Source: Volvox africanus (lineage: Eukaryota > Chlorophyta > Chlorophyceae > Chlamydomonadales > Volvocaceae). Taken from it: a stretch of 64,000 bases of DNA. Positions 1 through 44,010 of this stretch are shown here, piece after piece (the first letter of the stretch is position 1; the number at the start of each line of letters is the position of its first letter). The translations under genes were made by a program, and so were the position numbers. The stretch is from NCBI GenBank assembly GCA_030268105.1, contig BSDZ01000091.1, forward strand, positions 186,001 to 250,000, read 5' to 3'. Under the pieces are notes generated by a model. That model did not search any database and was not told where the DNA came from. It saw only the letters and a program-made list of their open reading frames with translations.

Positions 1-421
1 ACGTGGCGTTGGTGGCTTTGGTGGAGGCGTTGGTGGCGTTGGTGGCGGTAGTGGCGTTGGTGGTGGCGTTACGGTTTGTGGCGAACGTGGTGCTGATGGC
101 GCTGATGGTGCTGATGGCGGTGTCGGCGTTTGTGGCGTTGGTGAGGTTGGTGGCGGTAGTGGCGTTTGTGGCTTTGACGGCGTTGGTGGCGTTGGTGGGG
201 TTGGTGGCGTTGGTGGAGGCGTTGGTGGAGGCGTTGGTGGCGTTAGTGGCGTTGGTGGCGTTAGTGGCGGTGGTAGCGGTGGTGGTGGCGGCTGTGGCGG
301 TGGTAGCGGTGGTGGCAGCGGTGCTCGGGGCGATGTCGGTGATGGCGTTGGTGGCGTTGATGGCGTTGATGGCGGTGTTGGTGGTGGTGGCGTTGGTGGC
401 GCTGGTGGCGTTGGTGGTGGC

Positions 422-3400
422 GTGACGGTTTGTGGGGAACATGGCGCTGGTGGTGCAGATGGCGGTGTCGGCGGTTGCGGCGGTGGTGGCTTTGACTGCG
501 TTGGTGGCGTTGGTGGCGTTGGCGTTGGTGGCGTTGGCCGCGTTGGTTGCGTTGATGGCGGTGTTGGTGGTGGTGGCGGCGGCGGTGGTGGCGATGTCAG
601 TGATGGCGGACGTGTCGGACGTGGCGGTGGTGGCGATGGTGGCAGTGGTGACGTTGATGTCGGTGATGGCGGAAGTGGTTTTGCTGGCGGACGTGGCGTT
701 GGTGGCGTTGGTGGAGGCGTTGGTGGCGTTGGTGGCGTTGGTGGCGTTGGTGGCGTTAGTGGCGTTGGTGGCGGTGTTGGTGGTGGTGGCGGTGTTGGTG
801 GTGGTGGCGGCTGTGGCGGTGGTAGCTGTGGTGGCGGCGATGCTCGCGGCGATGTCGGTGATGGCGTTGGTGGCGTTGATGGCGTTGATGGCGGTGTTGG
901 TGGTGGTGGCGTTGGTGGCGCTGGTGGAGGCGTTGGTGGAGGCGTTGGTGGCGATAGTGGCGCTGGTGGCGTTAGTGGCGTTGGTCGCGGTGTTGGTGGT
1001 GGTGGCGGTGTTGGTGGTGGTGGCGTTGGTGGCGTGGATGGAGGCGTTGGTTGCGTTGGTGGCGTTGGTGGCGGTGTTGGTGGTGGTGGCGGCTGTGGCT
1101 GTGGTGGCGGTGATGGCGGCGTTGGTGGCGGCGATGTCAGTGATGGCGGACGTGGCTTTGGTGGCGGACGTGGCTTTGGTGGCGTTGGTGGCGTGGCTGG
1201 AGGCGTTGGTGGCAATGGTGGCGTTGGTGGCGTTGATGGAGGCGTTGGTGGTGTTGATGGAGGCGTTGGTGGTGTTAATGGAGGCGTTGGTGGCGTTGGT
1301 GGCGGTGTTGGTGGTGGTGGCGGTGTTGGTGGTGGTGGCTGCTGTGGCGGTGGTAGCGGTGGTGGCGGCGGTGCTCGCGGCGAGGTTGGTGATGGCGTTG
1401 GTGGCGTTGGTGGCGTTGATGGCGTTGGTGGCGTTGGTGGTGCTGGTGGCGTTGGTGGAGGCGTTGGTGGCGGTAGTGGCGTTGGTGTTGGCGTGACGGT
1501 TTGTGGCGAATGTGGCGCTGATGGTGCTGATGGCGGTGTTGGCGGTTGTGGCGGTGATGACTTTGACTGCGTTGGTGGCGTTGGCCGCCTTGGTGGCGGT
1601 GGTAGCGGTGGCGTTGGTGGCATTGGTGGCTTTGGTGTCGTTGATAGCGTTGATGGCGTTGGTGGCGTTGGTAGGGGCGTTGGTGGAGGCGTTAGTGGTG
1701 GCGTGACGGTTTGTAGGGAACGTGGCGCTGGTGGTGCTGATGGCGGTGTCGGTGGTTGCGGCGGTGGTGGCTTTGACTGCGTTGGTGGCGTTGGCGGCGT
1801 TAGTGGCTTTGGTGGCTTTGGTGTCGTTGGTGGCTTTGGTGGGGTTGGTGGCGTTGGTGGAGGCGTTGGTGGAGGCGTTGGTGGCGTTAGTGGCGTTGGT
1901 GGCTTTAGTGGCGTTGGTGGCGGTGTTGGTGGTGGTGGCGGCTGTGGCGGTGGTAGCGGTGGTGGCGGCGGTGCTCGCGGCGATGTCGGTGATGGCGTTG
2001 GTGGCGTTGATGGCGTTGATGGCGGTGTTGGTGTTGGTTGCGTTGGTGGCGCTGGTGGCGTTGGTGGAGGCGTTGGTGGCGTTGGTGGCGTTGGTGGTGG
2101 CGTTGGTGGTGGCGTGACGGTTTGTGGGGAACGTGGCGCTGGTGGTGCTAATGGCGGTGTCGGCGGTTGCGGCGGTGGTGGCTTTGACTGCGTTGGTGGC
2201 GTTGGTGGCGTTGGCGTTGGTGGCGTTGGTGGCGTTAGTGGCGTTGGTGGCGGTGTTGGTGGTGGTGGCGGTGTTGGTGGTGGTGGCGGCTGTGGCGGTG
2301 GTAGCTGTGGTGGCGGTGGTGCTCGCGGCGATGTCGGTGATGGCGTTGGTGGTGTTGATGGCGTTGATGGCGGTGTTGGTGATGGTGGCGTTGGTGGCGC
2401 TGGTGGAGGCGTTGGTGGAGGCGTTGGTCGCGATAGTGGTGCTGGTGGCGTTAGTGGCGTTGGTCGCGGTGTTGGTGGTGGTGGCGGTGTTGGTGGTGGT
2501 GGCGGCTGTGGCGGTGGTAGCGGTGGTGGCGGCGGTGCTCGCGGCGATGTCGGTGATGGCGTTAATGGTGTTGATGGCGTTGATGGCGGTGTTGGTGGTG
2601 GCGGCGTTGGTGGCGCTGGTGGCGTTGGTGTTGGCGTGACGGTTTGTGGCGAACGTGGCGCTGATGGTGCTGATGGCGGTGTTCGCGGTTGTGGTGGTGA
2701 TGACTTTGACTGCGTAAGTGGCGTTGGCCGCGTTGGTGGCGGTGGTAGCGGTGGCGTTGGTGGCATTGGTGGCTTTGGTGTCGTTGATAGCGTTGATGGC
2801 GTTGGTGGCGTTGGTAGGGGCGTTGGTGGAGGCGTTGGTGGTGGCGTGACGGTTTGTGGGGAACGTGGCGCTGGTGGCGTTGGCGTTGGTGGCGTTGGCG
2901 GCGTTGGTTGCGTTGGTGGCGGTGTTGGTGGTGGTGGCGGCGGCGGTGGTGGCGATGTCAGTGATGGCGGACGTGGCGGACGTGGCGGCGGTGGCAATGG
3001 TGGCAGTGGTGACGTTGATGTCGGTGATGGCGGAAGTGGTTTTGGTGGCGGACGTGGCGTTGGTGGCGTTGGTGGAGGCGTTGGTGGCGTTGGTGGCGGT
3101 AGTGGCGTTGGTGGTGGCGTTACGGTTTGTGGCGAACGTGGTGCTGATGGCGCTGATGGTGCTGATGGCGGTGTCGGCGTTTGTGGCGTTGGTGGGGTTG
3201 ATGGCGTTGGTGGAGGCGTTGGTGGAGGCGTTGGTGGCGTTAGAGGCGTTGGTGGCGTTAGTGGCGTTGGTGGCGGTGTTGGTGGTGGTGGCGGTGTTGG
3301 TGGTGGTGGCGGCTGTGGCGGTGGTAGCGGTGGTGGCAGCGGTGCTCGCGGCGATGTCGGTGATGGCGTTGGTGGCGTTGATGGCGTTGATGGCGGTGTT

Positions 3401-4801
3401 GGTGGTGGTGGCGTTGGTGGCGCTGGTGGCGTTGGTGGAGGCGTTGGTGGCGTTGGTGGCGTTGGTGGTGGCGTTGGTGGTGGCGTGACGGTTTGTGGGG
3501 AACGTGGCGCTGGTGGTGCTAATGGCGGTGTCGGCGGTTGCGGCGGTGGTGGCTTTGACTGCGTTGGTGGCGTTGGTGGCGTTGGCGTTGGTGGCGTTGG
3601 CGGCGTTGGTTGCGTTGGTGGCGGTGTTGGTGGTGGTGGCGGCGGGGGTGTCGGCGATGTCAGTGATGGCGGACGTGGCGGACGTGGCGGTGGTGGCGAT
3701 GGTGGCAGTGGTGACGTTGATGTCGGTGATGGCGGAAGTGGTTTTGGTGGCGGACGTGGCGTTGGTGGCGTTGGTGGAGGCGTTGGTGGCGTTGGTGGCG
3801 GTAGTGGCGTTGGTGGTGGCGTTACAGTTTGTGGCGAACGTGGTGCTGATGGCGCTGATGGTGCTGATGGCGGTGTCGGCGTTTGTGGCGTTGGTGAGGT
3901 TGGTGGCGGTAATGGCGTTTGTGGCTTTGACGGCGTTGGTGGTGTTGGTGGGGTTAGTGGCGTTGGTGGAGGCGTTGGTGGAGGCGTTGGTGGCGTTAGT
4001 GGCGTTGGTGGCGGTGTTGGTGGTGGTGGTGGTGTTGGTGGTGGTGGCGGCTGTGGCGGTGGTAGCGGTGGTGGCGGCGGTGCTCGCGGCGATGTCGGTG
4101 AAGGCGTTGGTGGCGTTGATGGCGTTGATGGCGGTGTTGGTGGTGATGGCGTTGGTGGCGCTGGTGGCGTTGGTGGAGGCGTTGGTAGCGTTGGTGGCGT
4201 TGGTGGTGGCGTTGGTGGTGGCGTGACGGTTTGTGGGGAACGTGGCGCTGGTGGTGCTAATGGCGGTGTCGGCGGTTGCGGCGGTGGTGGCTTTGACTGC
4301 GTTGGTGGCGTTGGTGGCGTTGGCGTTGGTGGCGTTGGCGGCGTTGGTTGCGTTGGTGGCGGTGTTGGTGGTGGTGGCGGCGGCGTTGGCGGCGATGTCA
4401 GTGATGGCGGACGTGGCGGACGTGGCGGCGTTGGCGATGGTGGCAGTGGTGACGTTGATGTCGGTGATGGCGGAAGTGGTTTTGGTGGCGGACGTGGCGT
4501 TGGTGGCGTTGGAGGCGTTGGTGGCGTTGGTGGCGTTGGTGGCGTTGGTGTAGGCGTTGGTGGCGTTGGTGGCGTTGGTTGCGTTGGTGGTGGCGTGACG
4601 GTTTTTGGCGATGGTGGTGCTGATGGCGGTTTCGGCGGTTGTGGCGTTGGTGAGGTTGGTGGCGGTAGTGGCGTTTGTGGCTTTGATGGCGTTGGTGGCG
4701 TTGGAGTCGTTGGTGTCGTTGGTGGCGGTGTCCTTGGTGGCGTTGGTGGCGTTGGTGGCGTTGGTGTAGGCGTTGGTGGCGTTGGTGGAGGCGTTGATTA
4801 G
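422..4801. repeat. Satellite cassette 1, ends at boundary box 4799
   Basis: This is the first cassette complete at its right side. The Gly-Gly-Val register is open from 422 to the TAG of the box at 4799-4801. Its right half (about 3,450-4,800) reappears 3,458 bp downstream (6,910-8,259) with almost no change. Its left half matches the next cassette only with indels of whole sub-blocks: the 2,856 box pairs with 5,945 at 3,089 bp spacing. That pattern is typical of unequal exchange. Confidence 0.85.
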
Positions 4802-7800
4802 TTGGCGTCCTTGGTGGCGGTGGCGTTGATGGCGTTGGTGGCGTTGGTGGCGTGGATGGAGGCGTTGGTTGCGTTGGTGGCGTTGGTGGCGGTGTTGGTG
4901 GTGGTGGCGGCTGTGGCTGTGGTGGCGGTGATGGCGGCGTTGGTGGCAGCGATGTCAGTGATGGCGGACGTGGCTTTGGTGGCGGACGTGGCTTTGGTTG
5001 CGTTGGTGGCGTGGCTGGAGGCGTTGGTGGCAATGGTGGCGTTGGTGGCGTTGATGGAGGCGTTGGTGGTGTTGATGGAGGCGTTGGTCGCGTGGATGGA
5101 GGCGTTGGTGGCGTTGGTGGCGGTGTTGGTGGTGGTGGCGGTGTTGGTGGTGGTGGCTGCTGTGGCGGTGGTAGCGGTGGTGGCGGCGGTGCTCGCGGCG
5201 ATGTCGGCGATGTCGGTGATGGCGTTGGTGGCGTTGGTGGCGTTGGTGGCGTTGATGGCGCTGGTGGCGTTGGTTGAGGCGTTGGTGGCGTTGGTGGCGT
5301 TGGTGGTGGCGTTGGTGGTGGCGTGACGGTTTGTGGGGAACATGGCGCTGGTGGTGCAGATGGCGGTGTCGGCGGTTGCGGCGGTGGTGGCTTTGACTGC
5401 GTTGGTGGCGTTGGTGGCGTTGGCGTTGGTGGCGTTGGCGGCGTTGGTTGCGTTGGTGGCGGTGTTGGTGGTGGTGGCGTTGGTGGCGCTGGTGGAGGCG
5501 TTGGTGGAGGCGTTGGTGGCGATAGTGGCGCTGGTGGCGTTAGTGGCGTTGGTCGCGGTGTTGGTGGTGGTGGCGGTGTTGGTGGTGGTGGCGGCTGTGG
5601 CGGTGGTAGCGGTGGTGGCGGCGGTGCTCGCGGCGATGTCGGTGATGGCGTTAATGGTGTTGATGGCGTTGATGGCGGTGTTGGTGGTGGCGGCGTTGGT
5701 GGCGCTGGTGGCGTTGGTGTTGGCGTGACGGTTTGTGGCGAACGTGGCGCTGATGGTGCTGATGGCGGTGTTCGCGGTTGTGGTGGTGATGACTTTGACT
5801 GCGTTGGTGGCGTTGGCCGCGTTGGTGGCGGTGGTAGCGGTGGCGTTGGTGGCATTGGTGGCTTTGGTGTCGTTGATAGCGTTGATGGCGTTGGTGGCGT
5901 TGGTAGGGGCGTTGGTGGAGGCGTTGGTGGTGGCGTGACGGTTTGTGGGGAACGTGGCGCTGGTGGCTTTGGCGTTGGTGGCGTTGGCGGCGTTGGTTGC
6001 GTTGGTGGCGGTGTTGGTGGTGGTGGCGGCGGCAGTGGTGGCGATGTCAGTGATGGCGGACGTGGCGGACGTGGCGGCGGTGGCAATGGTGGCAGTGGTG
6101 ACGTTGATGTCGGTGATGGCGGAAGTGGTTTTGGTGGCGGACGTGGCGTTGGTGGCGTTGGTGGAGGCGTTGGTGGCGTTGGTGGCGGTAGTGGCGTTGG
6201 TGGTGGCGTTACGGTTTGTGGCGAACGTGGTGCTGATGGCGCTGATGGTGCTGATGGCGGTGTCGGCGTTTGTGGCGTTGGTGGGGTTGATGGCGTTGGT
6301 GGAGGCGTTGGTGGAGGCGTTGGTGGCGTTAGTGGCGTTGGTGGCGTTAGTGGCGTTGGTGGCGGTGTTGGTGGTGGTGGCGGTGTTGGTGGTGGTGGCG
6401 GCTGTGGCGGTGGTAGCGGTGGTGGCAGCGGTGCTCGCGGCGATGTCGGTGATGGCGTTGGTGGCGTTGATGGCGTTGATGGCGGTGTTGGTGGTGGTGG
6501 CGTTGGTGGCGCTGGTGGCGTTGGTGGTGGCGTGACGGTTTGTGGGGAACATGGCGCTGGTGGTGCTGATGGTGGTGTCGGCGGTTGCGGCGGTGGTGGC
6601 TTTGACAGCGTTGGTGGCGTTGGCGGCGTTCGGGGCTTTGGTGGCTTTGGTGTCGTTGGTGGCTTTGGTGGGGTTGGTGGCGTTGGTGGAGGCGTTGGTG
6701 GAGGCGTTGGTGGCGTTAGTGGCGTTGGTGGCGGTGTTGGTGGTGGTGCCGGTGTTGGTGGTGGTGGCGGCTGTGGCGGTGGTAGCGGTGGTGGTGGCGG
6801 TGCTCGCGGCGATGTCGGTGAAGGCGTTGGTGGCGTTGATGGCGTTGATGGCGGTGTTGGTGGTGGTGGCGTTGGTGGCGCTGGTGGCGTTGGTGGAGGC
6901 GTTGGTGGCGTTGGTGGCGTTGGTGGTGGCGTTGGTGGTGGCGTGACGGTTTGTGGGGAACGTGGCGCTGGTGGTGCTAATGGCGGTGTCGGCGGTTGCG
7001 GCTGTGGTGGCTTTGACGGCGTTGGTGGCGTTGGTGGCGTTGGCGTTGGTGGCGTTGGCGGCGTTGGTTGCGTTGGTGGCGGTGTTGGTGGTGGTGGCGG
7101 CGGGGGTGTCGGCGATGTCAGTGATGGCGGACGTGGCGGACGTGGCGGTGGTGGCGATGGTGGCAGTGGTGACGTTGATGTCGGTGATGGCGGAAGTGGT
7201 TTTGGTGGCGGACGTGGCGTTGGTGGCGTTGGTGGAGGCGTTGGTGGCGTTGGTGGCGGTAGTGGCGTTGGTGGTGGCGTTACAGTTTGTGGCGAACGTG
7301 GTGCTGATGGCGCTGATGGTGCTGATGGCGGTGTCGGCGTTTGTGGCGTTGGTGAGGTTGGTGGCGGTAATGGCGTTTGTGGCTTTGACGGCGTTGGTGG
7401 TGTTGGTGGGGTTAGTGGCGTTGGTGGAGGCGTTGGTGGAGGCGTTGGTGGCGTTAGTGGCGTTGGTGGCGGTGTTGGTGGTGGTGGTGGTGTTGGTGGT
7501 GGTGGCGGCTGTGGCGGTGGTAGCGGTGGTGGCGGCGGTGCTCGCGGCGATGTCGGTGAAGGCGTTGGTGGCGTTGATGGCGTTGATGGCGGTGTTGGTG
7601 GTGATGGCGTTGGTGGCGCTGGTGGCGTTGGTGGAGGCGTTGGTAGCGTTGGTGGCGTTGGTGGTGGCGTTGGTGGTGGCGTGACGGTTTGTGGGGAACG
7701 TGGCGCTGGTGGTGCTAATGGCGGTGTCGGCGGTTGCGGCGGTGGTGGCTTTGACTGCGTTGGTGGCGTTGGTGGCGTTGGCGTTGGTGGCGTTGGCGGC

Positions 7801-8259
7801 GTTGGTTGCGTTGGTGGCGGTGTTGGTGGTGGTGGCGGCGGCGTTGGCGGCGATGTCAGTGATGGCGGACGTGGCGGACGTGGCGGCGTTGGCGATGGTG
7901 GCAGTGGTGACGTTGATGTCGGTGATGGCGGAAGTGGTTTTGGTGGCGGACGTGGCGTTGGTGGCGTTGGAGGCGTTGGTGGCGTTGGTGGCGTTGGTGG
8001 CGTTGGTGTAGGCGTTGGTGGCGTTGGTGGCGTTGGTTGCGTTGGTGGTGGCGTGACGGTTTTTGGCGATGGTGGTGCTGATGGCGGTGTCGGCGGTTGT
8101 GGCGTTGGTGAGGTTGGTGGCGGTAGTGGCGTTTGTGGCTTTGACGGCGTTGGTGGCGTTGGAGTCGTTGGTGTCGTTGGTGGCGGTGTCCTTGGTGGCG
8201 TTGGTGGCGTTGGTGGCGTTGGTGTAGGCGTTGGTGGCGTTGGTGGAGGCGTTGATTAG
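4802..8259. repeat. Satellite cassette 2 (3,458 bp)
   Basis: This cassette runs from box to box over 3,458 bp. Its first 525 bp (4,802-5,326) look identical to 8,260-8,784, the start of the next cassette, and its last third duplicates the end of cassette 1. Relative to cassette 1 it carries one additional sub-block of about 370 bp near 6,540-6,950. The box at 8257 has the same TAG variant as the box at 4799, which marks these two cassettes as sisters. Confidence 0.85.
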
Positions 8260-11200
8260 TTGGCGTCCTTGGTGGCGGTGGCGTTGATGGCGTTGGTGGC
8301 GTTGGTGGCGTGGATGGAGGCGTTGGTTGCGTTGGTGGCGTTGGTGGCGGTGTTGGTGGTGGTGGCGGCTGTGGCTGTGGTGGCGGTGATGGCGGCGTTG
8401 GTGGCAGCGATGTCAGTGATGGCGGACGTGGCTTTGGTGGCGGACGTGGCTTTGGTTGCGTTGGTGGCGTGGCTGGAGGCGTTGGTGGCAATGGTGGCGT
8501 TGGTGGCGTTGATGGAGGCGTTGGTGGTGTTGATGGAGGCGTTGGTCGCGTGGATGGAGGCGTTGGTGGCGTTGGTGGCGGTGTTGGTGGTGGTGGCGGT
8601 GTTGGTGGTGGTGGCTGCTGTGGCGGTGGTAGCGGTGGTGGCGGCGGTGCTCGCGGCGATGTCGGCGATGTCGGTGATGGCGTTGGTGGCGTTGGTGGCG
8701 TTGGTGGCGTTGATGGCGCTGGTGGCGTTGGTTGAGGCGTTGGTGGCGTTGGTGGCGTTGGTGGTGGCGTTGGTGGTGGCGTGACGGTTTGTGGGGAACA
8801 TGGCGCTGGTGGTGCAGATGGCGGTGTCGGCGGTTGCGGCGGTGGTGGCTTTGACTGCGTTGGTGGCGTTGGTGGCGTTGGCGTTGGTGGCGTTGGCGGC
8901 GTTGGTTGCGTTGGTGGCGGTGTTGGTGGTGGTGGCGGCGGCGGTGGTGGCGATGTCAGTGATGGCGGACGTGGCGGACGTGGCGGCGGTGGCGATGGTG
9001 GCAGTGGTGACGTTGATGTCGGTGATGGCGGAAGTGGTTTTGGTGGCGGACGTGGCGTTGGTGGCGTTGGTGGAGGCGTTGGTGGCGTTGGTGGCGGTAG
9101 TGGCATTGGTGGTGGCGTTACGGTTTGTGGCGAACGTGGTGCTGATGGCGCTGATGGTGCCGATGGCGGTGTCGGCGTTTGTGGCGTTGGTGAGGTTGGT
9201 GGCGGTAGTGGCGTTTGTGGCTTTGACGGCGTTGGTGGCGTTGGTGGGGTTGGTGGCGTTGGTGGAGGCGTTGGTGGAGGCGTTGGTGGCGTTAGTGGCG
9301 TTGGTGGCGTTAGTGGCGTTGGTGGCGGTGTTGGTGGTGGTGGCGGTGTTGGTGGTGGTGGCGGCTGTGGCGGTGGTAGCGGTGGTGGCAGCGGTGCTCG
9401 CGGCGATGTCGGTGATGGCGTTGGTGGCGTTGATGGCGTTGATGGCGGTGTTGGTGGTGGTGGCGTTGGTGGCGCTGGTGGCGTTGGTGGTGGCGTGACG
9501 GTTTGTGGGGAACATGGCGCTGGTGGTGCAGATGGCGGTGTCGGCGGTTGCGGCGGTGCTGGCTTTGACTGCGATGGTGGCGTTGGTGGCGTTGGCGTTG
9601 GTGGCGTTGGCGGCGTTGGTTGCGTTGGTGGCGGTGTTGGTGGTGGTGGCGGCGGCGGTGGTGGCGATGTCAGTGATGGCGGACGTGGCGGACGTGGCGG
9701 CGGTGGCAATGGTGGCAGTGGTGACGTTGATGTCGGTGATGGCGGAAGTGGTTTTGGTGGCGGACGTGGCGTTGGTGGCGTTGGTGGAGGCGTTGGTGGC
9801 GTTGGTGGCGTTAGTGGCATTGGTGGTGGCCTTACGGTTTGTGGCGAACGTGGTGCTGATGGCGCTGATGGTGCCGATGGCGGTGTCGGCGTTTGTGGCG
9901 TTGGTGAGGTTGGTGGCGGTAGTGGCGTTTGTGGCTTTGACGGCGTTGGTGGCTTTGGTGGGGTTGGTGGCGTTGGTGGAGGCGTTGGTGGAGGCGTTGG
10001 TGGCGTTAGTGGCGTTGGTGGCGTTAGTGGCGTTGGTGGCGGTGTTGGTGGTGGTGGCGGTGTTGGTGGTGGTGGCGGTGTTGGTGGTGGTGGCGGCTGT
10101 GGCGGTGGTAGCAGTGGTGGTGGCGGTGCTCGCGGCGATGTCGGTGATGGCGTTGGTGGCGTTGATGGCGTTGATGGCGGTGTTGGTGGTGGTGGCGTTG
10201 GTGGCGCTGGTGGCGTTGGTGGAGGCGTTGGTGGCGTTGGTGGCGTTGGTGGTGGCGTTGGTGGTGGCGTGACGGTTTGTGGGGAACGTGGCGCTGGTGG
10301 TGCTAATGGCGGTGTCGGCGGTTGCGGCGGTGGTGGCTTTGACTGCGTTGGTGGCGTTGGTGGCGTTGGCGTTGGTGGCGTTGGCGGCGTTGGTTGCGTT
10401 GGTGGCGGTGTTGGTGGTGGTGGCGGCGGCGGTGGCGGCGATGTCAGTGATGGCGGACGTGGCGGACGTGGCGGTGGTGGCGATGGTGGCAGTGGTGACG
10501 TTGATGTCGGTGATGGCGGAAGTGGTTTTGGTGGCGGACGTGGCGTTGGTGGCGTTGGTGGAGGCGTTGGTGGCGTTGGTGGCAATAGTGGCCTTGGTGG
10601 TGGCGTTACGGTTTGTGGCGAACGTGGTGCTGATGGAGCTGATGGTTCTGATGGCGGTGTCGGCGTTTGTGGCGTTGGTGAGGTTGGTGGCGGTAGTTGC
10701 GTTTGTGGCTTTGACGGCGTTGGTGGCGTTGGTGGGGTTGGTGGCGATGGTGGAGGCGTTGGTGGAGGCGTTGGTGGCGTTAGTGGCGTTGGTGGTGGCG
10801 TTACGGTTTGTGGCGAACGTGGTGCTGATGGCGCTGATGGTGCTGATGGCGGTGTCGGCGTTTGTGGCGTTGGTGAGGTTGTTGGCGGTAGTTGCGTTTG
10901 TGGCTTTGAGGGCGTTGGTGGCGTTGGTGGGGTTGGTGGTGTTGGTGGAGGCGTTGGTGAAGGCGTTGGTGGCCTTAGTGGCGTTGGTGGCGTTAGTGGC
11001 GTTGGTGGCGGTGTTGGTGGTGGTGGCGGTGTTGGTGGTGGTGGCGGCTGTGGCGGTGGTAGTGGTGGTGGCAGCGGTGCTCGCGGCGATGTCGGTGATG
11101 GCGTTGGTGGCGTTGATGGCGTTGATGGCGGTGTTGGTGGTGGTGGCGTTGGTGGCGCTGGTGGCGTTGGTGGTGGCGTGACGGTTTGTGGGGAACATGG

Positions 11201-31954: not shown

Positions 31955-33594
31955 TTGGCGTCGTTGGTGGCGGTGGCGTTGATGGCGTTGGTGGCGTTGG
32001 TGGCGTGGATGGAGGCGTTGGTTGCGTTGGTGGCGTTGGTGGCGGTGTTGGTGGTGGTGGTGGCTGTGGCTGTGGTGGCGGTGATGGCGGCGGTGGTGGC
32101 GGCGATGTCGGTGATGGCGGACGTGGCTTTGGTGGCGGAGGTGGCTTTGGTGGCGTTGGTGGCGTTGCTGGAGGCGTTGGTGGCAATGGTGGCATTGGTG
32201 GCGTTGATGGAGGCGTTGGTGGTGTTGATGGAGGCGTTGGTGGCGTTGATGGAGGCGTTGGTGGTGTTGATGGAGGCGTTGGTGGCGTTGATGGAGGCGT
32301 TGGTGGCAATGGTGGCGTTGGTGGCGTTGCTGGAGGCGTTGGTGGCAATAGTGGCGTTGGTGGCGTTGATGGAGGCGTTGGTGGTGTTGATGGAGGCGTT
32401 GGTGGCGTTGCTGGAGGCGTTGGTGGCGTTGGTGGCGGTGTTGGTGGTGGTGGCGGCTGTGGCGGTGGTAGCGGTGGTGGCGGCGGTGCTCGCGGCGATG
32501 TCGGTGATGGCGTTGGTGGCGTTGGTGGCGTTGATGGCGGTGTTGGTGTTGGTGGCGTTGGTGGCGTTGGTGGCGTTGGTGGAGGCGTTGGTGGCGTTGG
32601 TGGCCGTAGTTGCGTTGGTGGTGGCGTGACGGTTTGTGGCGAACGTGGCGCTGATGATGCTGATGGCGGTGTCGGCGGTTGTGGCGGTGGTGGCTTTGAC
32701 TGCGTTGGTGGCATTGGCCGCGTTGGTGGCGTTGGTGGCGGTGGCGTTGGTGGCGGTGGTGGCGTTGGTGGAGGCGTTGGTGGCGTTGGTGGCGTTGGTG
32801 GCGGTGTTGGTGGTGGTGGCGGCTGTGGCCGTGGTGGCGGTGATGGCGGCGGTGGTGGCGGCGATGTCGGTGATGGCGGACGTGGCTTTGGTGTCAGACG
32901 TGGCATTGGTGGCGTTGGTGGCGCTGGTGGCGTTGGTGGAGGCGTTGGTGGCGTTTGTGGTGGTAGTGGCGTGGGTGGTGGCGTTGGTGGTGGCGTGACG
33001 GTTTGTGGGGAACCTGGCGCTGGTTGTGCTGATGGCGGTGTCGGCGGTTGCGGCGGTGGTGGCTTTGACGGCGTTGGTGGCGTTGGCGGCGTTGGTGGCG
33101 TTGTCGTTGGTGGCGTTGGTTGCGTTGGTTGCGTTGGTGGCGGTGTTGGTGGTGGTGGCGGCGGCGGTGGCGGCGATGTCAGTGATGGCGGACGTGGCGG
33201 ACGTGGCGGCGGTGGCGATGGTGGCAGTGGTGACGTTGATGTCGGTGATGGCGGAAGTGGTTTTGGTGGCGGACGTGGCGTTGGTGGCGTTGGTGGAGGC
33301 GTTGGTGGCGTTGGTGGCGGTAGTGGCGTTGGTGGTGGCGTTATGGTTTGTGGCGGACGTGGTGCTGATGGCGCTGATGGTGCTGATGGCGGTGTCGGCG
33401 TTTGTGGCGTTGGTGAGGTTGGTGGCGGTAGTGGCGTTTGTGGCTTTGACGGCGTTGGTGGCGTTGGCGGCGTTGGTGGCGTTGGTGGCGGTGTCGTTGG
33501 TGGCGTTGGTGTCGTTGGTGGCGTTGGTGGAGGCGTTGGTGGCGTTGGTGGCGTTGGTGTAGGCGTTGGTGGCGTTGGTGGAGGCGTTGTTGAG
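31955..33594. repeat. Satellite cassette leading into the 2,933-bp domain
   Basis: The left part holds an expanded run of GATGGAGGCGTTGGTGG units (32,200-32,430). The right part (from about 32,600) is a version of the last third of the 2,933-bp cassettes, sharing their GAACCTGGCGCTGG variant box at 33,010. It is therefore a shortened member of the next family. Confidence 0.75.
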
Positions 33595-36527
33595 TTGGCG
33601 TCGTTGGTGGCGGTGGCGTTGATGGCGTTGGTGGCGTTGGTGGCGTGGATGGAGGCGTTGGTTGCGTTGGTGGCGTTGGTGGCGGTGTTGGTGGTGGTGG
33701 CGGGTGTGGCTGTGGTGGCGGTGATGGCGGCGGTGGTGGCGGCGATGTCGGTGATGGCGGACGTGGCTTTGGTGGCGGACGTGGCTTTGGTGGCGTTGGT
33801 GGCGTTGCTGGAGGCGTTGGTGGCAATGGTGGCGTTGGTGGCGTTGATGGAGGCGTTGGTGGTGTTGATGGAGGCGTTGGTGGCGTTGATGGAGGCGTTG
33901 GTGGCATTGGTGGCGGTGTTGGTGGTGGTGGCGGTGTTGGTGGTGGTGGCGGCTGTGGCGGTGGTAGCGGTGGTGGCGGCGGTGCTCGCGGCGATGTCGG
34001 TGATGGCGTTGGTGGCGTTGGTGGCATTGGTGGCGGTGTTGGTGTTGGTGGCGTTGGTGGCGTTGGTGGCGTTGGTGGAGGCGTTGGTGGCGTTGGTGGC
34101 CGTAGTGGCGTTGGTGGTGGCGTGACGGTTTGTGGCGAACGTGGCGCTGATGATGCTGATGGCGGTGTCGGCGGTTGTGGCGGTGGTGGCTTTGACTGCG
34201 TTGGTGGCGTTGGTGGCGTTGGTGGCGTTGGTGGCAGCGTTGGTTGCGTTGGTGGCGGTGTTGGTGGTGGTGGCGGCAGCGGTGGCGGCGATGTCAGTGA
34301 TGGCGGACGTGGCGGACGTGGCGGCGGTGGCGATGGTGGCAGTGGTGACGTTGATGTCCATGATGGCGGAAGTGGTTTTGGTGGCGGACGTGGCGTTGGT
34401 GGCGTTGGTGGAGGCGTTGGTGGCGTTGGTGGCGGTAGTGGCGTTGGTGGTGGCGTGACGGTTTGTGGCGAACGTGGCGCTGATGATGCTGATGGCGGTG
34501 TCGGCAGTTGTGGCGTTGGTGGCTTTGACTGCGTTGGTTGCATTGGCCGCGTTGGTGGCGTTGGTGGCGTTGGTGGCGGTGTTGGTGGTGGTGGCGGCTG
34601 TGGCTGTGGTGGCGGTGATGGCGGCGGTGGTGGCGGCGATGTCGGTGATGGCGGACGTGGCTTTGGTGGCGGACGTGGCTTTGGTGGCGTTGGTGGCGTT
34701 TCTGGAGGCGTTGGTGGCAATAGTGGCGTTGGTGGCGTTGATGGAGGCGTTGGTGGTGTTGATGGAGGCGTTGGTGGCGTTGATGGAGGCGTTGGTGGCG
34801 TTGGTGGCGGTGTTGGTGGTGGTGGCGGTGTTGGTGGTGGTGGCGGCTGTGGCGGTGGTAGCGGTGGTGGCGGCGGTGCTCGCAGCGATGTCGGTGATGG
34901 CGTTGGTGGCGTTGGTGGCGTTAATGGCGGTGTTGGTGTTGGTGGCGTTTGTGGAGGCGTTGGTGGCGTTGGTGGCGGTAGTGGCGTTGGTGGTGGCGTG
35001 ACGGTTTGTGGCGAACGTGGCGCTGGTGGTGCTAATGGCGGTGTCGGCGGTTGTGGCGTTGGTGGCTTTGACTGCGTTGGTGGCATTGGCCGCGTTGGTG
35101 GCGTTGGTGGCGTTGGTGGCGGTGTTGGTGGTGGTGGCGGCTGTGGCTGTGGTGGCGGTGATGGCGGCGGTGGTGGCGGCGATGTCGGTGATGGCGGACG
35201 TGGCTTTGGTGGCGGACGTGGCTTTGGTGGCGTTGGTGGCGTTACTGGAGGCGTTGGTGGCAATGGTGGCGTTGGTAACGTTGATGGAGGCGTTGGTGGT
35301 GTTGATGGAGGCGTTGGTGGCGTTGATGGAGGCGTTGGTGGCGTTGGTGGCGGTGTTGGTGGTGGTGGCGGCTGTGGCGGTGGTAGCGGTGGTGGCGGCG
35401 GTGCTCGCGGCGATGTCGGTGATGGCGTTGGTGGCGTTGGTGGCGTTGATGGCGGTGTTGGTGTTGGTGGCGTTGGTGGCGTTGGTGGCGTTGGTGGAGG
35501 CGTTGGTGGCGTTGGTGGCGGTAGTGGCGTTGGTGGTGGCGTGACGGTTTGTGGCGAACGTGGCGCTGATGATGCTGATGGCGGTGTCGGTTGTTGTGGC
35601 GGTGGTGGCTTTGACTGCGTTGGTGGCATTGGCCGCGTTGGTGGCGTTGGTGGCGGTGGCGTTGGTGGCGTTGGTGGCGTTGGTGGAGGCGTTGGTGGCG
35701 TTGGTGGCGTTGGTGGCGGTGTTGGTGGTGGTGGCGGCTGTGGCCGTGGTGGCGGTGATGGCGGCGGTGGTGGCGGCGATGTCGGTGATGGCGGACGTGG
35801 CTTTGGTGGCAGACGTGGCGTTGGTGGCGTTGGTGGCGCTGGTGGCGTTGGTGGAGGCGTTGGTGGCGTTTGTGGTGGTAGTGGCGTGGGTGGTGGCGTT
35901 GGTGGTGGCGTGACGGTTTGTGGGGAACCTGGCGCTGGTTGTGCTGATGGCGGTGTCGGCGGTTGCGGCTGTGGTGGCTTTGACGGCGTTGGTGGCGTTG
36001 GCGGCGTTGGTGGCGTTGGCGGCGTTGGTGGCGTTGTCGTTGGTGGCGTTGGTTGCGTTGGTTGCGTTGGTGGCGGTGTTGGTGGTGGTGGCGGCGGCGG
36101 TGGCGGCGATGTCAGTGATGGCGGACGTGGCGGACGTGGCGGCGGTGGCGATGGTGGCAGTGGTGACGTTGATGTCGGTGATGGCGGAAGTGGTTTTGGT
36201 GGCGGACGTGGCGTTGGTGGCGTTGGTGGAGGCGTTGGTGGCGTTGGTGGCGGTAGTGGCGTTGGTGGTGGCGTTACGGTTTGTGGCGGACGTGGTGCTG
36301 ATGGCGCTGATGGTGCTGATGGCGGTGTCGGCGTTTGTGGCGTTGGTGAGGTTGGTGGCGGTAGTGGCGTTTGTGGCTTTGACGGCGTTGGTGGCGTTGG
36401 CGGCGTTGGTGGCGTTGGTGGCGGTGTCGTTGGTGGCGTTGGTGTCGTTGGTGGCGTTGGTGGAGGCGTTGGTGGCGTTGGTGGCGTTGGTGTAGGCGTT
36501 GGTGGCGTTGGTGGAGGCGTTGTTGAG
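33595..36527. repeat. 2,933-bp higher-order repeat, copy 1
   Basis: Boxes at 33,592 and 36,525 are 2,933 bp apart. Internal landmarks at 34,132, 34,465, 35,008, 35,551 and 35,920 recur at +2,933 in copy 2. Divergence between the copies is a few substitutions per kilobase by eye, which suggests a recent duplication or ongoing homogenisation. Confidence 0.9.
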
Positions 36528-39460
36528 TTGGCGTCGTTGGTGGCGGTGGCGTTGATGGCGTTGGTGGCGTTGGTGGCGTGGATGGAGGCGTTGGTTGCGT
36601 TGGTGGCGTTGGTGGCGGTGTTGGTGGTGGTGGCGGGTGTGGCTGTGGTGGCGGTGATGGCGGCGGTGGTGGCGGCGATGTCGGTGATGGCGGACGTGGC
36701 TTTGGTGGCGGACGTGGCTTTGGTGGCGTTGGTGGCGTTGCTGGAGGCGTTGGTGGCAATGGTGGCGTTGGTGGCGTTGATGGAGGCGTTGGTGGTGTTG
36801 ATGGAGGCGTTGGTGGCGTTGATGGAGGCGTTGGTGGCATTGGTGGCGGTGTTGGTGGTGGTGGCGGTGTTGGTGGTGGTGGCGGCTGTGGCGGTGGTAG
36901 CGGTGGTGGCGGCGGTGCTCGCGGCGATGTCGGTGATGGCGTTGGTGGCGTTGGTGGCATTGATGGCGGTGTTGGTGTTGGTGGCGTTGGTGGCGTTGGT
37001 GGCGTTGGTGGAGGCGTTGGTGGCGTTGGTGGCCGTAGTGGCGTTGGTGGTGGCGTGACGGTTTGTGGCGAACGTGGCGCTGATGATGCTGATGGCGGTG
37101 TCGGCGTTTGTGGCGGTGGTGGCTTTGACTGCGTTGGTGGCGTTGGTGGCGTTGGTGGCGTTGGTGGCAGCGTTGGTTGCGTTGGTGGCGGTATTGGTGT
37201 TGGTGGCGGCAGCGGTGGCGGCGATGTCAGTGATGGCGGACGTGGCGGACGTGGCGGCGGTGGCGATGGTGGCAGTGGTGACGTTGATGTCCATGATGGC
37301 GGAAGTGGTTTTGGTGGCGGACGTGGCGTTGGTGGCGTTGGTGGAGGCGTTGGTGGCGTTGGTGGCGGTAGTGGCGTTGGTGGTGGCGTGACGGTTTGTG
37401 GCGAACGTGGCGCTGATGATGCTGATGGCGGTGTCGGCGTTTGTGGCGTTGGTGGCTTTGACTGCGTTGGTTGCATTGGCCGCGTTGGTGGCGTTGGTGG
37501 CGTTGGTGGCGGTGTTGGTGGTGGTGGCGGCTGTGGCTGTGGTGGCGGTGATGGCGGCGGTGGTGGCGGCGATGTCGGTGATGGCGGACGTGGCTTTGGT
37601 GGCGGACGTGGCTTTGGTGGCGTTGGTGGCGTTTCTGGAGGCGTTGGTGGCAATAGTGGCGTTGGTGGCGTTGATGGAGGCGTTGGTGGTGTTGATGGAG
37701 GCGTTGGTGGCGTTGATGGAGGCGTTGGTGGCGTTGGTGGCGGTGTTGGTGGTGGTGGCGGTGTTGGTGGTGGTGGCGGCTGTGGCGGTGGTAGCGGTGG
37801 TGGCGGCGGTGCTCGCAGCGATGTCGGTGATGGCGTTGGTGGCGTTGGTGGCGTTAATGGCGGTGTTGGTGTTGGTGGCGTTTGTGGAGGCGTTGGTGGC
37901 GTTGGTGGCGGTAGTGGCGTTGGTGGTGGCGTGACGGTTTGTGGCGAACGTGGCGCTGGTGGTGCTAATGGCGGTGTCGGCGGTTGTGGCGTTGGTGGCT
38001 TTGACTGCGTTGGTGGCATTGGCCGCGTTGGTGGCGTTGGTGGCGTTGGTGGCGGTGTTGGTGGTGGTGGCGGCTGTGGCTGTGGTGGCGGTGATGGCGG
38101 CGGTGGTGGCGGCGATGTCGGTGATGGCGGACGTGGCTTTGGTGGCGGACGTGGCTTTGGTGGCGTTGGTGGCGTTACTGGAGGCGTTGGTGGCAATGGT
38201 GGCGTTGGTAACGTTGATGGAGGCGTTGGTGGTGTTGATGGAGGCGTTGGTGGCGTTGATGGAGGCGTTGGTGGCGTTGGTGGCGGTGTTGGTGGTGGTG
38301 GCGGCTGTGGCGGTGGTAGCGGTGGTGGCGGCGGTGCTCGCGGCGATGTCGGTGATGGCGTTGGTGGCGTTGGTGGCGTTGATGGCGGTGTTGGTGTTGG
38401 TGGCGTTGGTGGCGTTGGTGGCGTTGGTGGAGGCGTTGGTGGCGTTGGTGGCGGTAGTGGCGTTGGTGGTGGCGTGACGGTTTGTGGCGAACGTGGCGCT
38501 GATGATGCTGATGGCGGTGTCGGTTGTTGTGGCGGTGGTGGCTTTGACTGCGTTGGTGGCATTGGCCGCGTTGGTGGCGTTGGTGGCGGTGGCGTTGGTG
38601 GCGGTGGTGGCGTTGGTGGAGGCGTTGGTGGCGTTGGTGGCGTTGGTGGCGGTGTTGGTGGTGGTGGCGGCTGTGGCCGTGGTGGCGGTGATGGCGGCGG
38701 TGGTGGCGGCGATGTCGGTGATGGCGGACGTGGCTTTGGTGGCAGACGTGGCGTTGGTGGCGTTGGTGGCGCTGGTGGCGTTGGTGGAGGCGTTGGTGGC
38801 GTTTGTGGTGGTAGTGGCGTGGGTGGTGGCGTTGGTGGTGGCGTGACGGTTTGTGGGGAACCTGGCGCTGGTTGTGCTGATGGCGGTGTCGGCGGTTGCG
38901 GCTGTGGTGGCTTTGACGGCGTTGGTGGCGTTGGCGGCGTTGGTGGCGTTGGCGGCGTTGGTGGCGTTGTCGTTGGTGGCGTTGGTTGCGTTGGTTGCGT
39001 TGGTGGCGGTGTTGGTGGTGGTGGCGGCGGCGGTGGCGGCGATGTCAGTGATGGCGGACGTGGCGGACGTGGCGGCGGTGGCGATGGTGGCAGTGGTGAC
39101 GTTGATGTCGGTGATGGCGGAAGTGGTTTTGGTGGCGGACGTGGCGTTGGTGGCGTTGGTGGAGGCGTTGGTGGCGTTGGTGGCGGTAGTGGCGTTGGTG
39201 GTGGCGTTACGGTTTGTGGCGGACGTGGTGCTGATGGCGCTGATGGTGCTGATGGCGGTGTCGGCGTTTGTGGCGTTGGTGAGGTTGGTGGCGGTAGTGG
39301 CGTTTGTGGCTTTGACGGCGTTGGTGGCGTTGGCGGCGTTGGTGGCGTTGGTGGCGGTGTCGTTGGTGGCGTTGGTGTCGTTGGTGGCGTTGGTGGAGGC
39401 GTTGGTGGCGTTGGTGGCGTTGGTGTAGGCGTTGGTGGCGTTGGTGGAGGCGTTGTTGAG
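36528..39460. repeat. 2,933-bp higher-order repeat, copy 2
   Basis: Second full copy, with every landmark of copy 1 shifted by exactly 2,933 bp. Private changes include GTATTGGTGTTGG near 37,190, where copy 1 has GTGTTGGTGGTGG. Confidence 0.9.
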
Positions 39461-40584
39461 TTGGCGTCGTTGGTGGCGGTGGCGTTGATGGCGTTGGTGG
39501 CGTTGGTGGCGTGGATGGAGGCGTTGGTTGCGTTGGTGGCGTTGGTGGCGGTGTTGGTGCTGGTGGCGGCTGTGGCTGTGGTGGCGGTGATGGCGGCGGT
39601 GGTGGCGGCGATGTCGGTGATGGCGGACGTGGCTTTGGTGGCGGACGTGGCTTTGGTGGCGTTGGTGGCGTTGCTGGAGGCGTTGGTGGCAATGGTGGCG
39701 TTGGTGGCGTTGATGGAGGCGTTGGTGGTGTTGATGGAGGCGTTGGTGGCGTTGATGGAGGCGTTGGTGGCGTTGGTGGCGGTGTTGGTGGTGGTGGCGG
39801 TGTTGGTGGTGGTGGCGGCTGTGGCGGTGGTAGCGGTGGTGGCGGCGGTGCTCGCGGCGATGTCGGTGATGGCGTTGGTGGCGTTGGTGGCGTTGATGGC
39901 GGTGTTGGTGTTGGTGGCGTTGGTGGCGTTGGTGGCGTTGGTGGAGGCGTTGGTGGCGTTGGTGGCCGTAGTGGCGTTGGTGGTGGCGTGACGGTTTGTG
40001 GCGAACGTGGCGCTGATGATGCTGATGGCGGTGTCGGCGTTTGTGGCGGTGGTGGCTTTGACTGCGTTGGTGGCGTTGGTGGCGTTGGTGGCGTTGGTGG
40101 CGGCGTTGGTTGCGTTGGTTGCGTTGGTGGCGGTGTTGGTGGTGGTGGCGGCGGCGGTGGCGGCGATGTCAGTGATGGCGGACGTGGCGGACGTGGCGGC
40201 GGTGGCGATGGTGGCAGTGGTGACGTTGATGTCGGTGATGGCGGAAGTGGTTTTGGTGGCGGACGTGGCGTTGGTGGCGTTGGTGGAGGCGTTGGTGGCG
40301 TTGGTGGCGGTAGTGGCGTTGGTGGTGGCGTTACGGTTTGTGGCGGACGTGGTGCTGATGGCGCTGATGGTGCTGATGGCGGTGTCGGCGTTTGTGGCGT
40401 TGGTGAGGTTGGTGGCGGTAGTGGCGTTTGTGGCTTTGACGGCGTTGGTGGCGTTGGCGGCGTTGGTGGCGTTGGTGGCGGTGTCGTTGGTGGCGTTGGT
40501 GTCGTTGGTGGCGTTGGTGGAGGCGTTGGTGGCGTTGGTGGCGTTGGTGTAGGCGTTGGTGGCGTTGGTGGAGGCGTTGTTGAG
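39461..40584. repeat. 2,933-bp unit, internally deleted copy (1,124 bp)
   Basis: The first roughly 600 bp and the last roughly 500 bp of the 2,933-bp cassette are present and fused, with the central 1.8 kb absent. The register shift at its box is the same as for full copies. Confidence 0.85.
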
Positions 40585-43198
40585 TTGGCGTCGTTGGTGG
40601 CGGTGGCGTTGATGGCGTTGGTGGCGTTGGTGGCGTGGATGGAGGCGTTGGTTGCGTTGGTGGCGTTGGTGGCGGTGTTGGTGCTGGTGGCGGCTGTGGC
40701 TGTGGTGGCGGTGATGGCGGCGGTGGTGGCGGCGATGTCGGTGATGGCGGACGTGGCTTTGGTGGCGGACGTGGCTTTGGTGGCGTTGGTGGCGTTGCTG
40801 GAGGCGTTGGTGGCAATGGTGGCGTTGGTGGCGTTGATGGAGGCGTTGGTGGTGTTGATGGAGGCGTTGGTGGCGTTGATGGAGGCGTTGGTGGCGTTGG
40901 TGGCGGTGTTGGTGGTGGTGGCGGTGTTGGTGGTGGTGGCGGCTGTGGCGGTGGTAGCGGTGGTGGCGGCGGTGCTCGCGGCGATGTCGGTGATGGCGTT
41001 GGTGGCGTTGGTGGCGTTGATGGCGGTGTTGGTGTTGGTGGCGTTGGTGGCGTTGGTGGCGTTGGTGGAGGCGTTGGTGGCGTTGGTGGCCGTAGTGGCG
41101 TTGGTGGTGGCGTGACGGTTTGTGGCGAACGTGGCGCTGATGATGCTGATGGCGGTGTCGGCGGTTGTGGCGGTGGTGGCTTTGACTGCGTTGGTGGCGT
41201 TGGTGGCGTTGGTGGCGTTGGTGGCGGCGTTGGTTGCGTTGGTGGCGGTGTTGGTGGTGGTGGCGGCGGCGGTGGCGGCGATGTCAGTGATGGCGGACGT
41301 GGCGGACGTGGCGGCGGTGGCGATGGTGGCAGTGGTGACGTTGATGTCGGTGATGGCGGAAGTGGTTTTGGTGGCGGACGTGGCGTTGGTGGCGTTGGTG
41401 GAGGCGTTGGTGGCGTTGGTGGCGGTAGTGGCGTTGGTGGTGGCGTGACGGTTTGTGGCGAACGTGGCGCTGATGATGCTGATGGCGGTGTCGGCGTTTG
41501 TGGCGTTGGTGGCTTTGACTGCGTTGGTTGCATTGGCCGCGTTGGTGGCGTTGGTGGCGTTGGTGGCGGTGTTGGTGGTGGTGGCGGCTGTGGCTGTGGT
41601 GGCGGTGATGGCGGCGGTGGTGGCGGCGATGTCGGTGATGGCGGACGTGGCTTTGGTGGCGGACGTGGCTTTGGTGGCGTTGGTGGCGTTTCTGGAGGCG
41701 TTGGTGGCAATAGTGGCGTTGGTGGCGTTGATGGAGGCGTTGGTGGTGTTGATGGAGGCGTTGGTGGCGTTGATGGAGGCGTTGGTGGCGTTGGTGGCGG
41801 TGTTGGTGGTGGTGGCGGTGTTGGTGGTGGTGGCGGCTGTGGCGGTGGTAGCGGTGGTGGCGGCGGTGCTCGCGGCGATGTCGGTGATGGCGTTGGTGGC
41901 GTTTGTGGCGTTGATGGCGGTGTTGGTGTTGGTGGCGTTTGTGGAGGCGTTGGTGGCGTTGGTGGCGGTAGTGGCGTTGGTGGTGGCGTGACGGTTTGTG
42001 GCGAACGTGGCGCTGGTGGTGCTAATGGCGGTGTCGGCGGTTGTGGCGTTGGTGGCTTTGACTGCGTTGGTGGCATTGGCCGCGTTGGTGGCGTTGGTGG
42101 CGTTGCTGGCGGTGTTGGTGGTGGTGGCGGCTGTGGCTGTGGTGGCGGTGATGGCGGCGGTGGTGGCGGCGATGTCGGTGATGGCGGACGTGGCTTTGGT
42201 GGCGGACGTGGCTTTGGTGGCGTTGGTGGCGTTGCTGGAGGCGTTGGTGGCAATGGTGGCGTTGGTGGCGTTGATGGAGGCGTTGGTGGCGTTGATGGAG
42301 GCGTTGGTGGCGTTGATGGAGGCGTTGGTGGCGTTGGTGGAGGCGTTGGTGGAGGCGTTGGTGGCGTTAGTGGCGTTGGTGGCGGTGTTGGTGGTGGTGG
42401 CGGTGTTGGTGGTGGTGGCGGCTGTGGCGGTGGTAGCGGTGGTGGCGGCGGTGCTCGCGGCGATGTCGGTGATGGCGTTGGTGGCGTTGGTGGCGTTGAT
42501 GGCGGTGTTGGTGTTGGTGGCGTTGGTGGCGTTGGTGGCGTTGGTGGAGGCGTTGGTGGCGTTGGTGGCGGTAGTGGCGTTGGTGGTGGCGTGACGGTTT
42601 GTGGCGAACGTGGCGCTGATGATGCTGATGGCGGTGTCGGTTGTTGTGGCGGTGGTGGCTTTGACTGCGTTGGTGGCATTGGCCGCGTTGGTGGCGTTGG
42701 TGGCGGTGGCGTTGGTGGCGGTGGTGGCGTTGGTGGAGGCGTTGGTGGCGTTGGTGGCGTTGGTGGCGGTGTTGGTGGTGGTGGCGGCTGTGGCCGTGGT
42801 GGCGTTGATGGCGGCGGTGGTGGCGGCGATGTCGGTGATGGCGGACGTGGCTTTGGTGGCAGACGTGGCGTTGGTGGCGTTGGTGGCGCTGGTGGCGTTG
42901 GTGGAGGCGTTGGTGGCGTTTGTGGTGGTAGTGGCGTGGGTGGTGGCGTTGGTGGTGGCGTGACGGTTTGTGGGGAACGTGGCGCTGGTGGTGCTGATGG
43001 CGGTGTCGGCGGTTGCGGCGGTGGTGGCTTTGACGGCGTTGGTGGCGTTGGCGGCGTTGGTGGCGTTGTCGTTGGTGGCGTTGGTTGCGTTGGTTGCGTT
43101 GGTGGCGGTGTTGGTGGTGGTGGCGGCGGCGGTGGCGGCGATGTCAGTGATGGCGGACGTGGCGGACGTGGCGGCGGTGGCGATGGTGGCGGTGGTGG
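40585..43198. repeat. 2,933-bp unit, last copy, interrupted on the right
   Basis: Landmarks at 41,122, 41,455 and 41,998 keep the internal spacing of the full copies. A 60-bp gain (around 42,340-42,400, carrying GTTAGTGGC units) then shifts the later landmarks to 42,601 and 42,970. The copy stops at a C-rich insertion before reaching its boundary box. Confidence 0.85.
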
Positions 43199-43282
43199 CC
43201 TCCCTACCTCCCTCACTCTGTCCTTCCCTCCCGCCCACCCAATCTCCCCCCCACCCTCCCTCCCTCCCTTTCTACCTACATT
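43199..43282. repeat. C-rich tract, G-quadruplex motif on the - strand
   Basis: About 84 bp of pyrimidine-rich sequence (runs such as CCCCCCACCCTCCCTCCCTC) break the satellite, which resumes at about 43,283 for another 200 bp. The strand bias is opposite to the array: C and T on +, so G-runs on -. At least four runs of three or more G lie within 25 nt on the - strand, which fits the classical G-quadruplex pattern. It may be an insertion or a seam between array blocks. Confidence 0.75.
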
Positions 43283-43957: not shown

Positions 43958-44010
43958 AAAGTTATGAGGGAATTCGCCTATAACTCCTAACGCTCTCATA
44001 GATATATCCA

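What the first reader, a model, noticed from the sequence alone, without database searches (positions are those of the whole stretch)
422..43198. Each satellite boundary box rotates the repeat register by one reading frame
Take the phase (coordinate mod 3) of the Gly-Gly-Val register in each successive cassette: 422, 5323, 8781, 13013, 15220, 25440, 26330, 27016, 28086, 28772, 29842, 30528, (two boxes), 32005, 33645, 36578, 39511, 40635. The residues are 2,1,0,2,1,0,2,1,0,2,1,0,(2),1,0,2,1,0, an unbroken cycle. Within cassettes indels are multiples of 3 and usually of 9, yet every boundary, plus the internal shift of the 1,756-bp unit, moves the frame by the same step. On the - strand a single open frame therefore passes through Asn-Ala-Thr, then Thr-Pro-Pro, then Gln-Arg-His dialects of the same DNA. 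This argues against one giant repeat protein spanning the array, but leaves individual cassettes, or spliced products, possible.
Basis: seen in the sequence. Interest (0 to 1): 0.75.

Follow-up and report, generated by a model that had tools for sequence, protein, structure and literature searches.

The report
Box-marked algal minisatellite, rotating repeat register
A long G-rich tandem-repeat array in what is almost certainly a Volvox genome shifts its three-base register by one base, always in the same direction, at each internal boundary, because the boundaries are copies of two old small changes multiplied as the array grew; the repeats show no sign of coding for protein.

Summary
The phase cycle is real. 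In the window the 9-mer GTTGGTGGC falls into 18 phase runs, and 17 of 17 changes have the same sign, -1. A decoder that does not rely on that word agrees: 18 of 18 over the whole 76-kb array, which starts about 32 kb before the window. But the changes are not independent. Fourteen of the 17 window boundaries are copies of one box; the other three are an identical one-base deletion carried by a 1,756-bp unit. Two founder changes agree in sign half the time by chance. Arrays on contig C16 behave alike: 109 of 111 changes are -1, nearly all at another box family. Founders counted by eye over the arrays read are 7 of -1 and 1 of +1: at most an ordinary deletion bias. Three frames are almost stop-free at once, and 423 distinct substitutions in this array show no synonymous excess in any of six frames. 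Best reading: a non-coding minisatellite grown by tandem duplication of segments, with boxes counting duplications modulo 3. Frame-breaking indels inside cassettes are rarer than in the flanks, which I cannot fully explain.

The parts
1..43490 (+). G-rich minisatellite array (9-bp unit GTTGGTGGC and variants); right part of a 76-kb array, C88 about 153500-229490
   Evidence: period 9, about 4,675 copies in 3-43125; GC skew about 0.6 up to 42 kb
4787..4830 (+). box copy, variant GATTAG; phase 2 to 1
8245..8288 (+). box copy, variant GATTAG; phase 1 to 0
12948..12991 (+). box copy; phase 0 to 2
15155..15198 (+). box copy, variant GAGTAGACG; phase 2 to 1
25375..25418 (+). box copy; phase 1 to 0
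26265..26308 (+). box copy; phase 0 to 2
26996..27003 (+). one-base deletion GGTGAGGC, copy 1 (second founder change), in the 1,756-bp unit; phase 2 to 1
28021..28064 (+). box copy; phase 1 to 0
28752..28759 (+). one-base deletion GGTGAGGC, copy 2; phase 0 to 2
29777..29820 (+). box copy, variant GAATTGG; phase 2 to 1
30508..30515 (+). one-base deletion GGTGAGGC, copy 3; phase 1 to 0
31869..31912 (+). first of two adjacent boxes (71 bp apart); phase 0 to 2
31940..31983 (+). second of two adjacent boxes; phase 2 to 1
33580..33623 (+). box copy; phase 1 to 0
36513..36556 (+). box copy (2,933-bp unit); phase 0 to 2
39446..39489 (+). box copy (2,933-bp unit); phase 2 to 1
40570..40613 (+). box copy; phase 1 to 0
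43200..43282 (+). CT-rich insert near the 3' edge; similar ones lie at the left edge of the array and in the short C113 locus
43483..44800 (+). 3' flank shared with C113 and, for its first part, with C16

Best explanation
A non-coding, G-rich minisatellite grew by repeated tandem duplication of segments (box to box 0.07 to 10 kb). Two changes that shift the 3-bp register by -1 arose in it: the box, and a one-G deletion in the 1,756-bp unit. Each was carried along whenever its segment was duplicated. Most other length changes are gains or losses of 3- and 9-bp sub-units, which leave the register alone. The register at any point therefore counts, modulo 3, how many box or deletion copies lie before it. 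Shown: the copies, their likeness, the constant step, the absence of codon constraint. Inferred: unequal exchange or gene conversion as the duplicating process, a one-base-deletion bias behind the shared sign of separate founders, a heterochromatic setting. I find no sign of a product; any role would be as bulk repeat DNA.
For: The 17 window changes are 14 copies of one box and 3 identical deletion junctions. The 60-bp box cores have pairwise identity 0.92 at least, median 0.98; random pairs of the 285 sites sharing the same 10-mer have median 0.78, 95th percentile 0.95 (those 285 include the boxes and other segment copies). The 26-bp box has 16 matches in the genome with up to 3 mismatches, 15 of them in this array, 1 on C16; the reversed control pattern has 1. 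Long segment copies (1.2-3.0 kb) are 88-99.9% identical, with offsets such as 1756, 2933, 2361 and 1320. C16 repeats the pattern with its own box: 50 of 52 and 59 of 59 exact-word changes are -1; of the two exceptions one holds two box copies and the other is a one-base insertion. No coding signal: synonymous z between -0.8 and +1.0 in six frames for 423 distinct substitutions, trinucleotide-context null; 151 distinct variants among 312 motif copies likewise in the pooled set. Stops in 25,024 codons: 2, 3 and 1 in the three open frames, 163, 374 and 1,877 in the others. Overlapping ORFs of 11,866, 12,510 and 11,983 codons cover the same 35.6 kb.
Against: Frame-breaking indels are rare inside the array: 4 of 96 distinct gap clusters against 423 substitutions in C88. 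Four C88-C113 flank alignments have 18 against 116; C88-C16 and C16-C113 flanks 3 against 48 and 8 against 68; ten LTR pairs 0 to 2 against 3 to 30, four of them 0. C16 arrays by the same context count: 61 of 382 non-zero clusters against 1,368 substitutions; 52 of the 60 rows listed there (a capped list, judged by eye) hold the box or a variant. Exchange between units may inflate the substitution counts, so the comparison is rough, but I did not model it. Separate founders lean one way (7 to 1), which descent alone does not explain. In one search the C88 subset alone has p = 0.027 for a synonymous excess in the Asn-Ala-Thr frame (one of six frames; not seen).
Confidence: 0.86

Rival explanations
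1. The cassettes are coding: a Gly-Gly-Val protein on the + strand, or a Thr-Pro-Pro protein on the - strand like the proline-rich wall proteins of volvocine algae (likeness recalled), with boxes marking gene or exon ends.
For: Long open frames, to 3,484 codons in the window's + ORFs and 11,866 in the cassette that ends in the window; few frame-breaking indels within cassettes.
Against: No synonymous excess in any frame (423 substitutions) or in the pooled set; the C88 subset has p = 0.027 for Asn-Ala-Thr, but one search gives z = -0.3 for that frame. Three frames open at once. The C16 arrays shift frame every few hundred bases.
Confidence: 0.04
2. The steps are assembly or sequencing errors (long-read one-base deletions at the boxes).
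For: The matching published assembly was made from PacBio reads with Canu and corrected with Pilon (PMC10291315, passages read); short reads map poorly in repeats (general knowledge).
Against: Random errors would scatter, but 35.5 kb has none. The steps sit at 14 boxes, some with linked variants (GATTAG twice, GAATTGG, GAGTAGACG), and at 3 identical deletion junctions.
Confidence: 0.05
3. The shared sign is selected, because on the + strand a -1 step leads from Gly-Gly-Val into the Leu-Val-Ala frame (fewer stops) and a +1 step into the Trp-Arg-Trp frame (many stops).
For: Founders 7 of -1 to 1 of +1 (classes by eye); 163 against 1,877 stops per 25,024 codons in the two destination frames.
Against: The sign test on founders is weak (two-sided p = 0.07, by hand); no codon constraint; one-base deletions commonly exceed insertions (recalled).
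Confidence: 0.02

Closest known systems
Minisatellites / tandem repeats with higher-order units
   Same: Short degenerate unit, long array, nested segment duplications with near-identical copies.
   Different: The 9-bp unit has a 3-bp sub-period, so the register can be followed as phase, and the box makes a visible modulo-3 counter. I saw no paper on such a counter in the listings of six searches; that does not prove absence.
G-rich unstable minisatellites such as human CEB1 (PMC2673046, listing and start of abstract only)
   Same: G-rich repeat.
   Different: The array here is 76 kb; instability and quadruplex formation were not tested.
Satellites and centromeric repeats of Chlamydomonas relatives (PMC8226300, passages only)
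   Same: Green algae with tandem repeats and clustered transposable elements.
   Different: The passages define satellite DNA as tandem repeats with monomers over 10 bp and discuss clusters of ZeppL elements as likely centromeric sequence; no link with this array was tested.

Membership tests
Minisatellite-type tandem array with higher-order repeats | head-to-tail array of a short unit (minisatellite range of very roughly 6-100 bp, recalled) | tested here: met
   period 9, about 4,675 copies
Minisatellite-type tandem array with higher-order repeats | higher-order units with high mutual identity | tested here: met
   segment copies of 1.2-3.0 kb at 88-99.9%
Minisatellite-type tandem array with higher-order repeats | length variation between individuals | not testable with these tools
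   one assembly only
Satellite DNA as defined in PMC8226300 | monomer above 10 bp | tested here: not met
   basic unit 9 bp, though its higher-order units are longer; so not filed under that definition
Protein-coding Gly-rich or Pro-rich repeat gene | purifying selection on codons | tested here: not met
   (pooled)
Protein-coding Gly-rich or Pro-rich repeat gene | transcript and peptide | not testable with these tools
   no RNA or peptide data here
Protein-coding Gly-rich or Pro-rich repeat gene | conserved non-repeat end of the protein | tested here: not met
   the tail ORF after the array is open in C88 and C113 but has an in-frame TAA in C16; C88-C113 differences in the tail, read by eye: 1 synonymous, 3 not, in about 45 codons

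The most novel reading that the evidence does not exclude
The 3-bp register of the cassettes is actively kept: the 35.6-kb cassette that ends in the window is a real 11,866-codon Gly-rich reading frame (or one of about 12,000 codons on the other strand) in which residue identity hardly matters but an open frame does. That would explain rare frame-breaking indels without a synonymous excess.
Probability: 0.03. Interest if true: 0.75.

Novelty: new member of a known kind. Interest (0 to 1): 0.27.

Why it matters
The box-marked register gives a simple way to trace the duplication history of a long minisatellite, since each box copy is a countable step. The array is also a warning for annotation: three overlapping frames of about 12,000 codons can be open with no sign of coding constraint.

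Tried and rejected
Box as intron: the + strand core offers only a 9-bp GT...AG (GTTGTTGAG), and I see no GT in the minus strand around the step (by eye). C16 junction GTTGCAG as a splice acceptor: the AG is not kept (GTTGCGGC, GTTGTGGT). Coding. A substitution test without sequence context gave departures (118 synonymous against 151.5 expected in Gly-Gly-Val; 134 against 102.2 in Asn-Ala-Thr; 145 against 102.7 in Leu-Val-Ala); they vanished with trinucleotide context. All-against-all gap counts showed many non-multiples of 3 (for example 371 distinct among C88 copies at 80-90% identity, 22 at 95-100%); I judged these to be mostly alignments that split unit-sized gaps and did not use them. A universal -1 rule: in L037 one of three exact-word changes is +1, though decoding shows two -1 changes there. 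At penalty 6 the short C113 array gives one -1 and one +1, at 9 and 14 none. A pre-stated prediction for an unread C16 stretch could not be tested because the fetch did not complete. One search compared three minus-strand loci in the wrong orientation and found nothing; one search repeated it rightly.
Full report
What and where. The window is C88:186001-250000 of a 140,993,249-bp, 126-contig assembly. A retrotransposon ORF from the same contig is 100% identical, over 73% of its length, to a predicted protein of Volvox africanus with locus prefix VaNZ11. The published assembly of V. africanus strain 1101-NZ-11 has 141.0 Mbp in 129 contigs (PMC10291315, passages read). I infer that strain; the contig counts differ by three. 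Positions 1 to about 43490 are the right part of a 76-kb G-rich array of the 9-mer GTTGGTGGC and variants.

The observation. Exact 9-mers give 18 phase runs and 17 changes in the window, all the same step. A 3-state phase decoder trained on the 35.5-kb cassette C88:155234-190772 gives 18 of 18 changes of -1 over C88:153621-229500 at penalties 9 and 14; at penalty 6, 19 of -1 and 1 of +1. It treated planted +1 and -1 changes alike (20 calls of each for 20 planted of each). Before the window there is one more change, with the same step, at a diverged box, and then none for 35.5 kb up to window position 4772.

Why the steps agree. The 17 window boundaries fall into two families: 14 copies of one box, and 3 identical copies of a one-base deletion (GGTGGAGGC to GGTGAGGC) in 1,756-bp repeats. 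The box before the window makes 15, so 15 + 3 = 18. The cycle rests on two founder changes, and agreement in sign between two founders has an even chance. Of 13 box-to-box distances, 10 are 2 mod 3, and the 3 that span a deletion are 1 mod 3. Identity alone would not prove descent, since the 95th percentile of random same-anchor pairs is 0.95; the box sequence itself is what is special: 15 of its 16 genome matches at up to 3 mismatches lie in this array (reversed control pattern, 1 match).

Other arrays. On C16 I read two stretches of 30 kb (911-941 and 1101-1131 kb), with the G-rich strand opposite; whether they form one array is not known, as the middle was not fetched. Exact words give 50 of 52 and 59 of 59 changes of -1. 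Of the two exceptions, one holds two box copies and one is a one-base insertion. Decoding of 52.5 kb gives 117 of -1 and 4 of +1 at penalty 14; at penalty 9, 120 and 13, of which (by eye) 8 of the +1 lie in LTR sequence, 4 in telomere-like inserts and 1 is that insertion; a few of the -1 calls lie in LTR or telomere-like sequence too. Nearly all other -1 changes are the junction GTTGC(A/G)GC and variants, which aligns with GTTGATGGC in unshifted copies. A small array on C113 (L037) has 4 changes of -1 at two further junctions; the short C113 array has none at penalties 9 and 14, and one of each sign at 6. Founder classes, by eye, leaving out LTR and telomere-like inserts and what lies next to them: seven of -1 (C88 box, C88 deletion, C16 box, C16 GTGGGAAC, C16 GTTGACGCG, L037 GGTGCGGCG, L037 GGCAACG) and one of +1 (C16 GTTAAACGGC). 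Whether the C88 and C16 boxes share an origin is open; that would make it six to one. Seven to one gives a two-sided sign-test p of 0.07 (by hand).

Coding or not. Three of six frames are nearly free of stops: Gly-Gly-Val 2, Asn-Ala-Thr 3, Thr-Pro-Pro 1 in 25,024 codons; the others have 163, 374 and 1,877. In the 35.6-kb cassette all three run for about 12,000 codons. Substitutions between segment copies (280 alignments of at least 700 bp; 423 distinct by 13-bp context, kept only where both copies are in the same phase) show no synonymous excess under a trinucleotide-context null: z = 0.8, 0.0, 0.8, -0.3, -0.8, 1.0. Without context the same data gave a deficit in Gly-Gly-Val and an excess in Asn-Ala-Thr and Leu-Val-Ala, which I put down to sequence context. 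In a 90-bp motif, 312 copies (ungapped, at least 80% identical to a reference; others dropped) with 151 distinct variants give no excess in the pooled set; the C88 subset has p = 0.027 for Asn-Ala-Thr. The 992-aa + ORF has no Pfam match and no protein match at E <= 0.001 (a weak test for such sequence).

The left-over puzzle. Inside C88, 4 of 96 distinct gap clusters are not multiples of 3, against 423 substitutions; the junctions printed show them to be the two founder changes. In four C88-C113 flank alignments 18 gaps are not multiples of 3 against 116 substitutions; C88-C16 gives 3 against 48, C16-C113 8 against 68; ten LTR pairs give 0 to 2 against 3 to 30, four of the ten giving 0. C16 by the context count gives 61 non-multiples and 321 multiples against 1,368 substitutions, 52 of the 60 listed non-multiple rows holding the box or a variant. 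Exchange between units may inflate the substitution count and add unit-sized gaps, and runs of one base longer than four are few in the array, so some deficit is expected, but I did not model it.

Setting. The array's 3' edge is shared with C113, which has only about 0.6 kb of array, and in part with C16 (82-87% identity), so I infer that the three loci descend from one. C88 before the array carries long retrotransposon ORFs, of Ty1 type by the Pfam domains of homologues and of Ty3 type by Pfam. The Ty3-type ORF that ends 1.7 kb before the array has a chromodomain (PF00385, E = 3.2e-11). Members of that family lie inside the C16 array: an element with both LTRs, 3 differences in 821 bp, and an LTR piece. 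That fits heterochromatin, which I did not test.

Verdict. The rule-like behaviour is explained by copying of a few small changes during segmental duplication in a minisatellite that shows no coding constraint.

Noticed in passing
C88:155201-190798 (loci L015-L018 and window 1-4798): A 35.6-kb stretch in constant phase, open on + (11,866 codons) and in two - frames (12,510 and 11,983 codons) at once.
   Followed up: yes
L029 (C16:1121001-1131000) and L027 (near C16:1107 kb): A Ty3-type LTR retrotransposon with near-identical LTRs (3 differences in 821 bp) sits inside the C16 array; a separate LTR piece lies near C16:1107 kb.
   Followed up: partly
window 59565-63183, - strand: Gag- and pol-like ORFs resembling the Ty3-type family whose C88:147784-151842 copy carries a chromodomain.
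   Followed up: partly
L032, C16:936532 and C16:940196: Telomere-like TTTTAGGG repeats inside the minisatellite array, two similar copies; none found in C88:86001-250000.
   Followed up: partly
window 44400-44900: Part of the 3' flank belongs to a dispersed repeat found on many contigs, on C32 and C15 partly near a contig end, and repeated at C32:916-922 kb; possibly subtelomeric.
   Followed up: no
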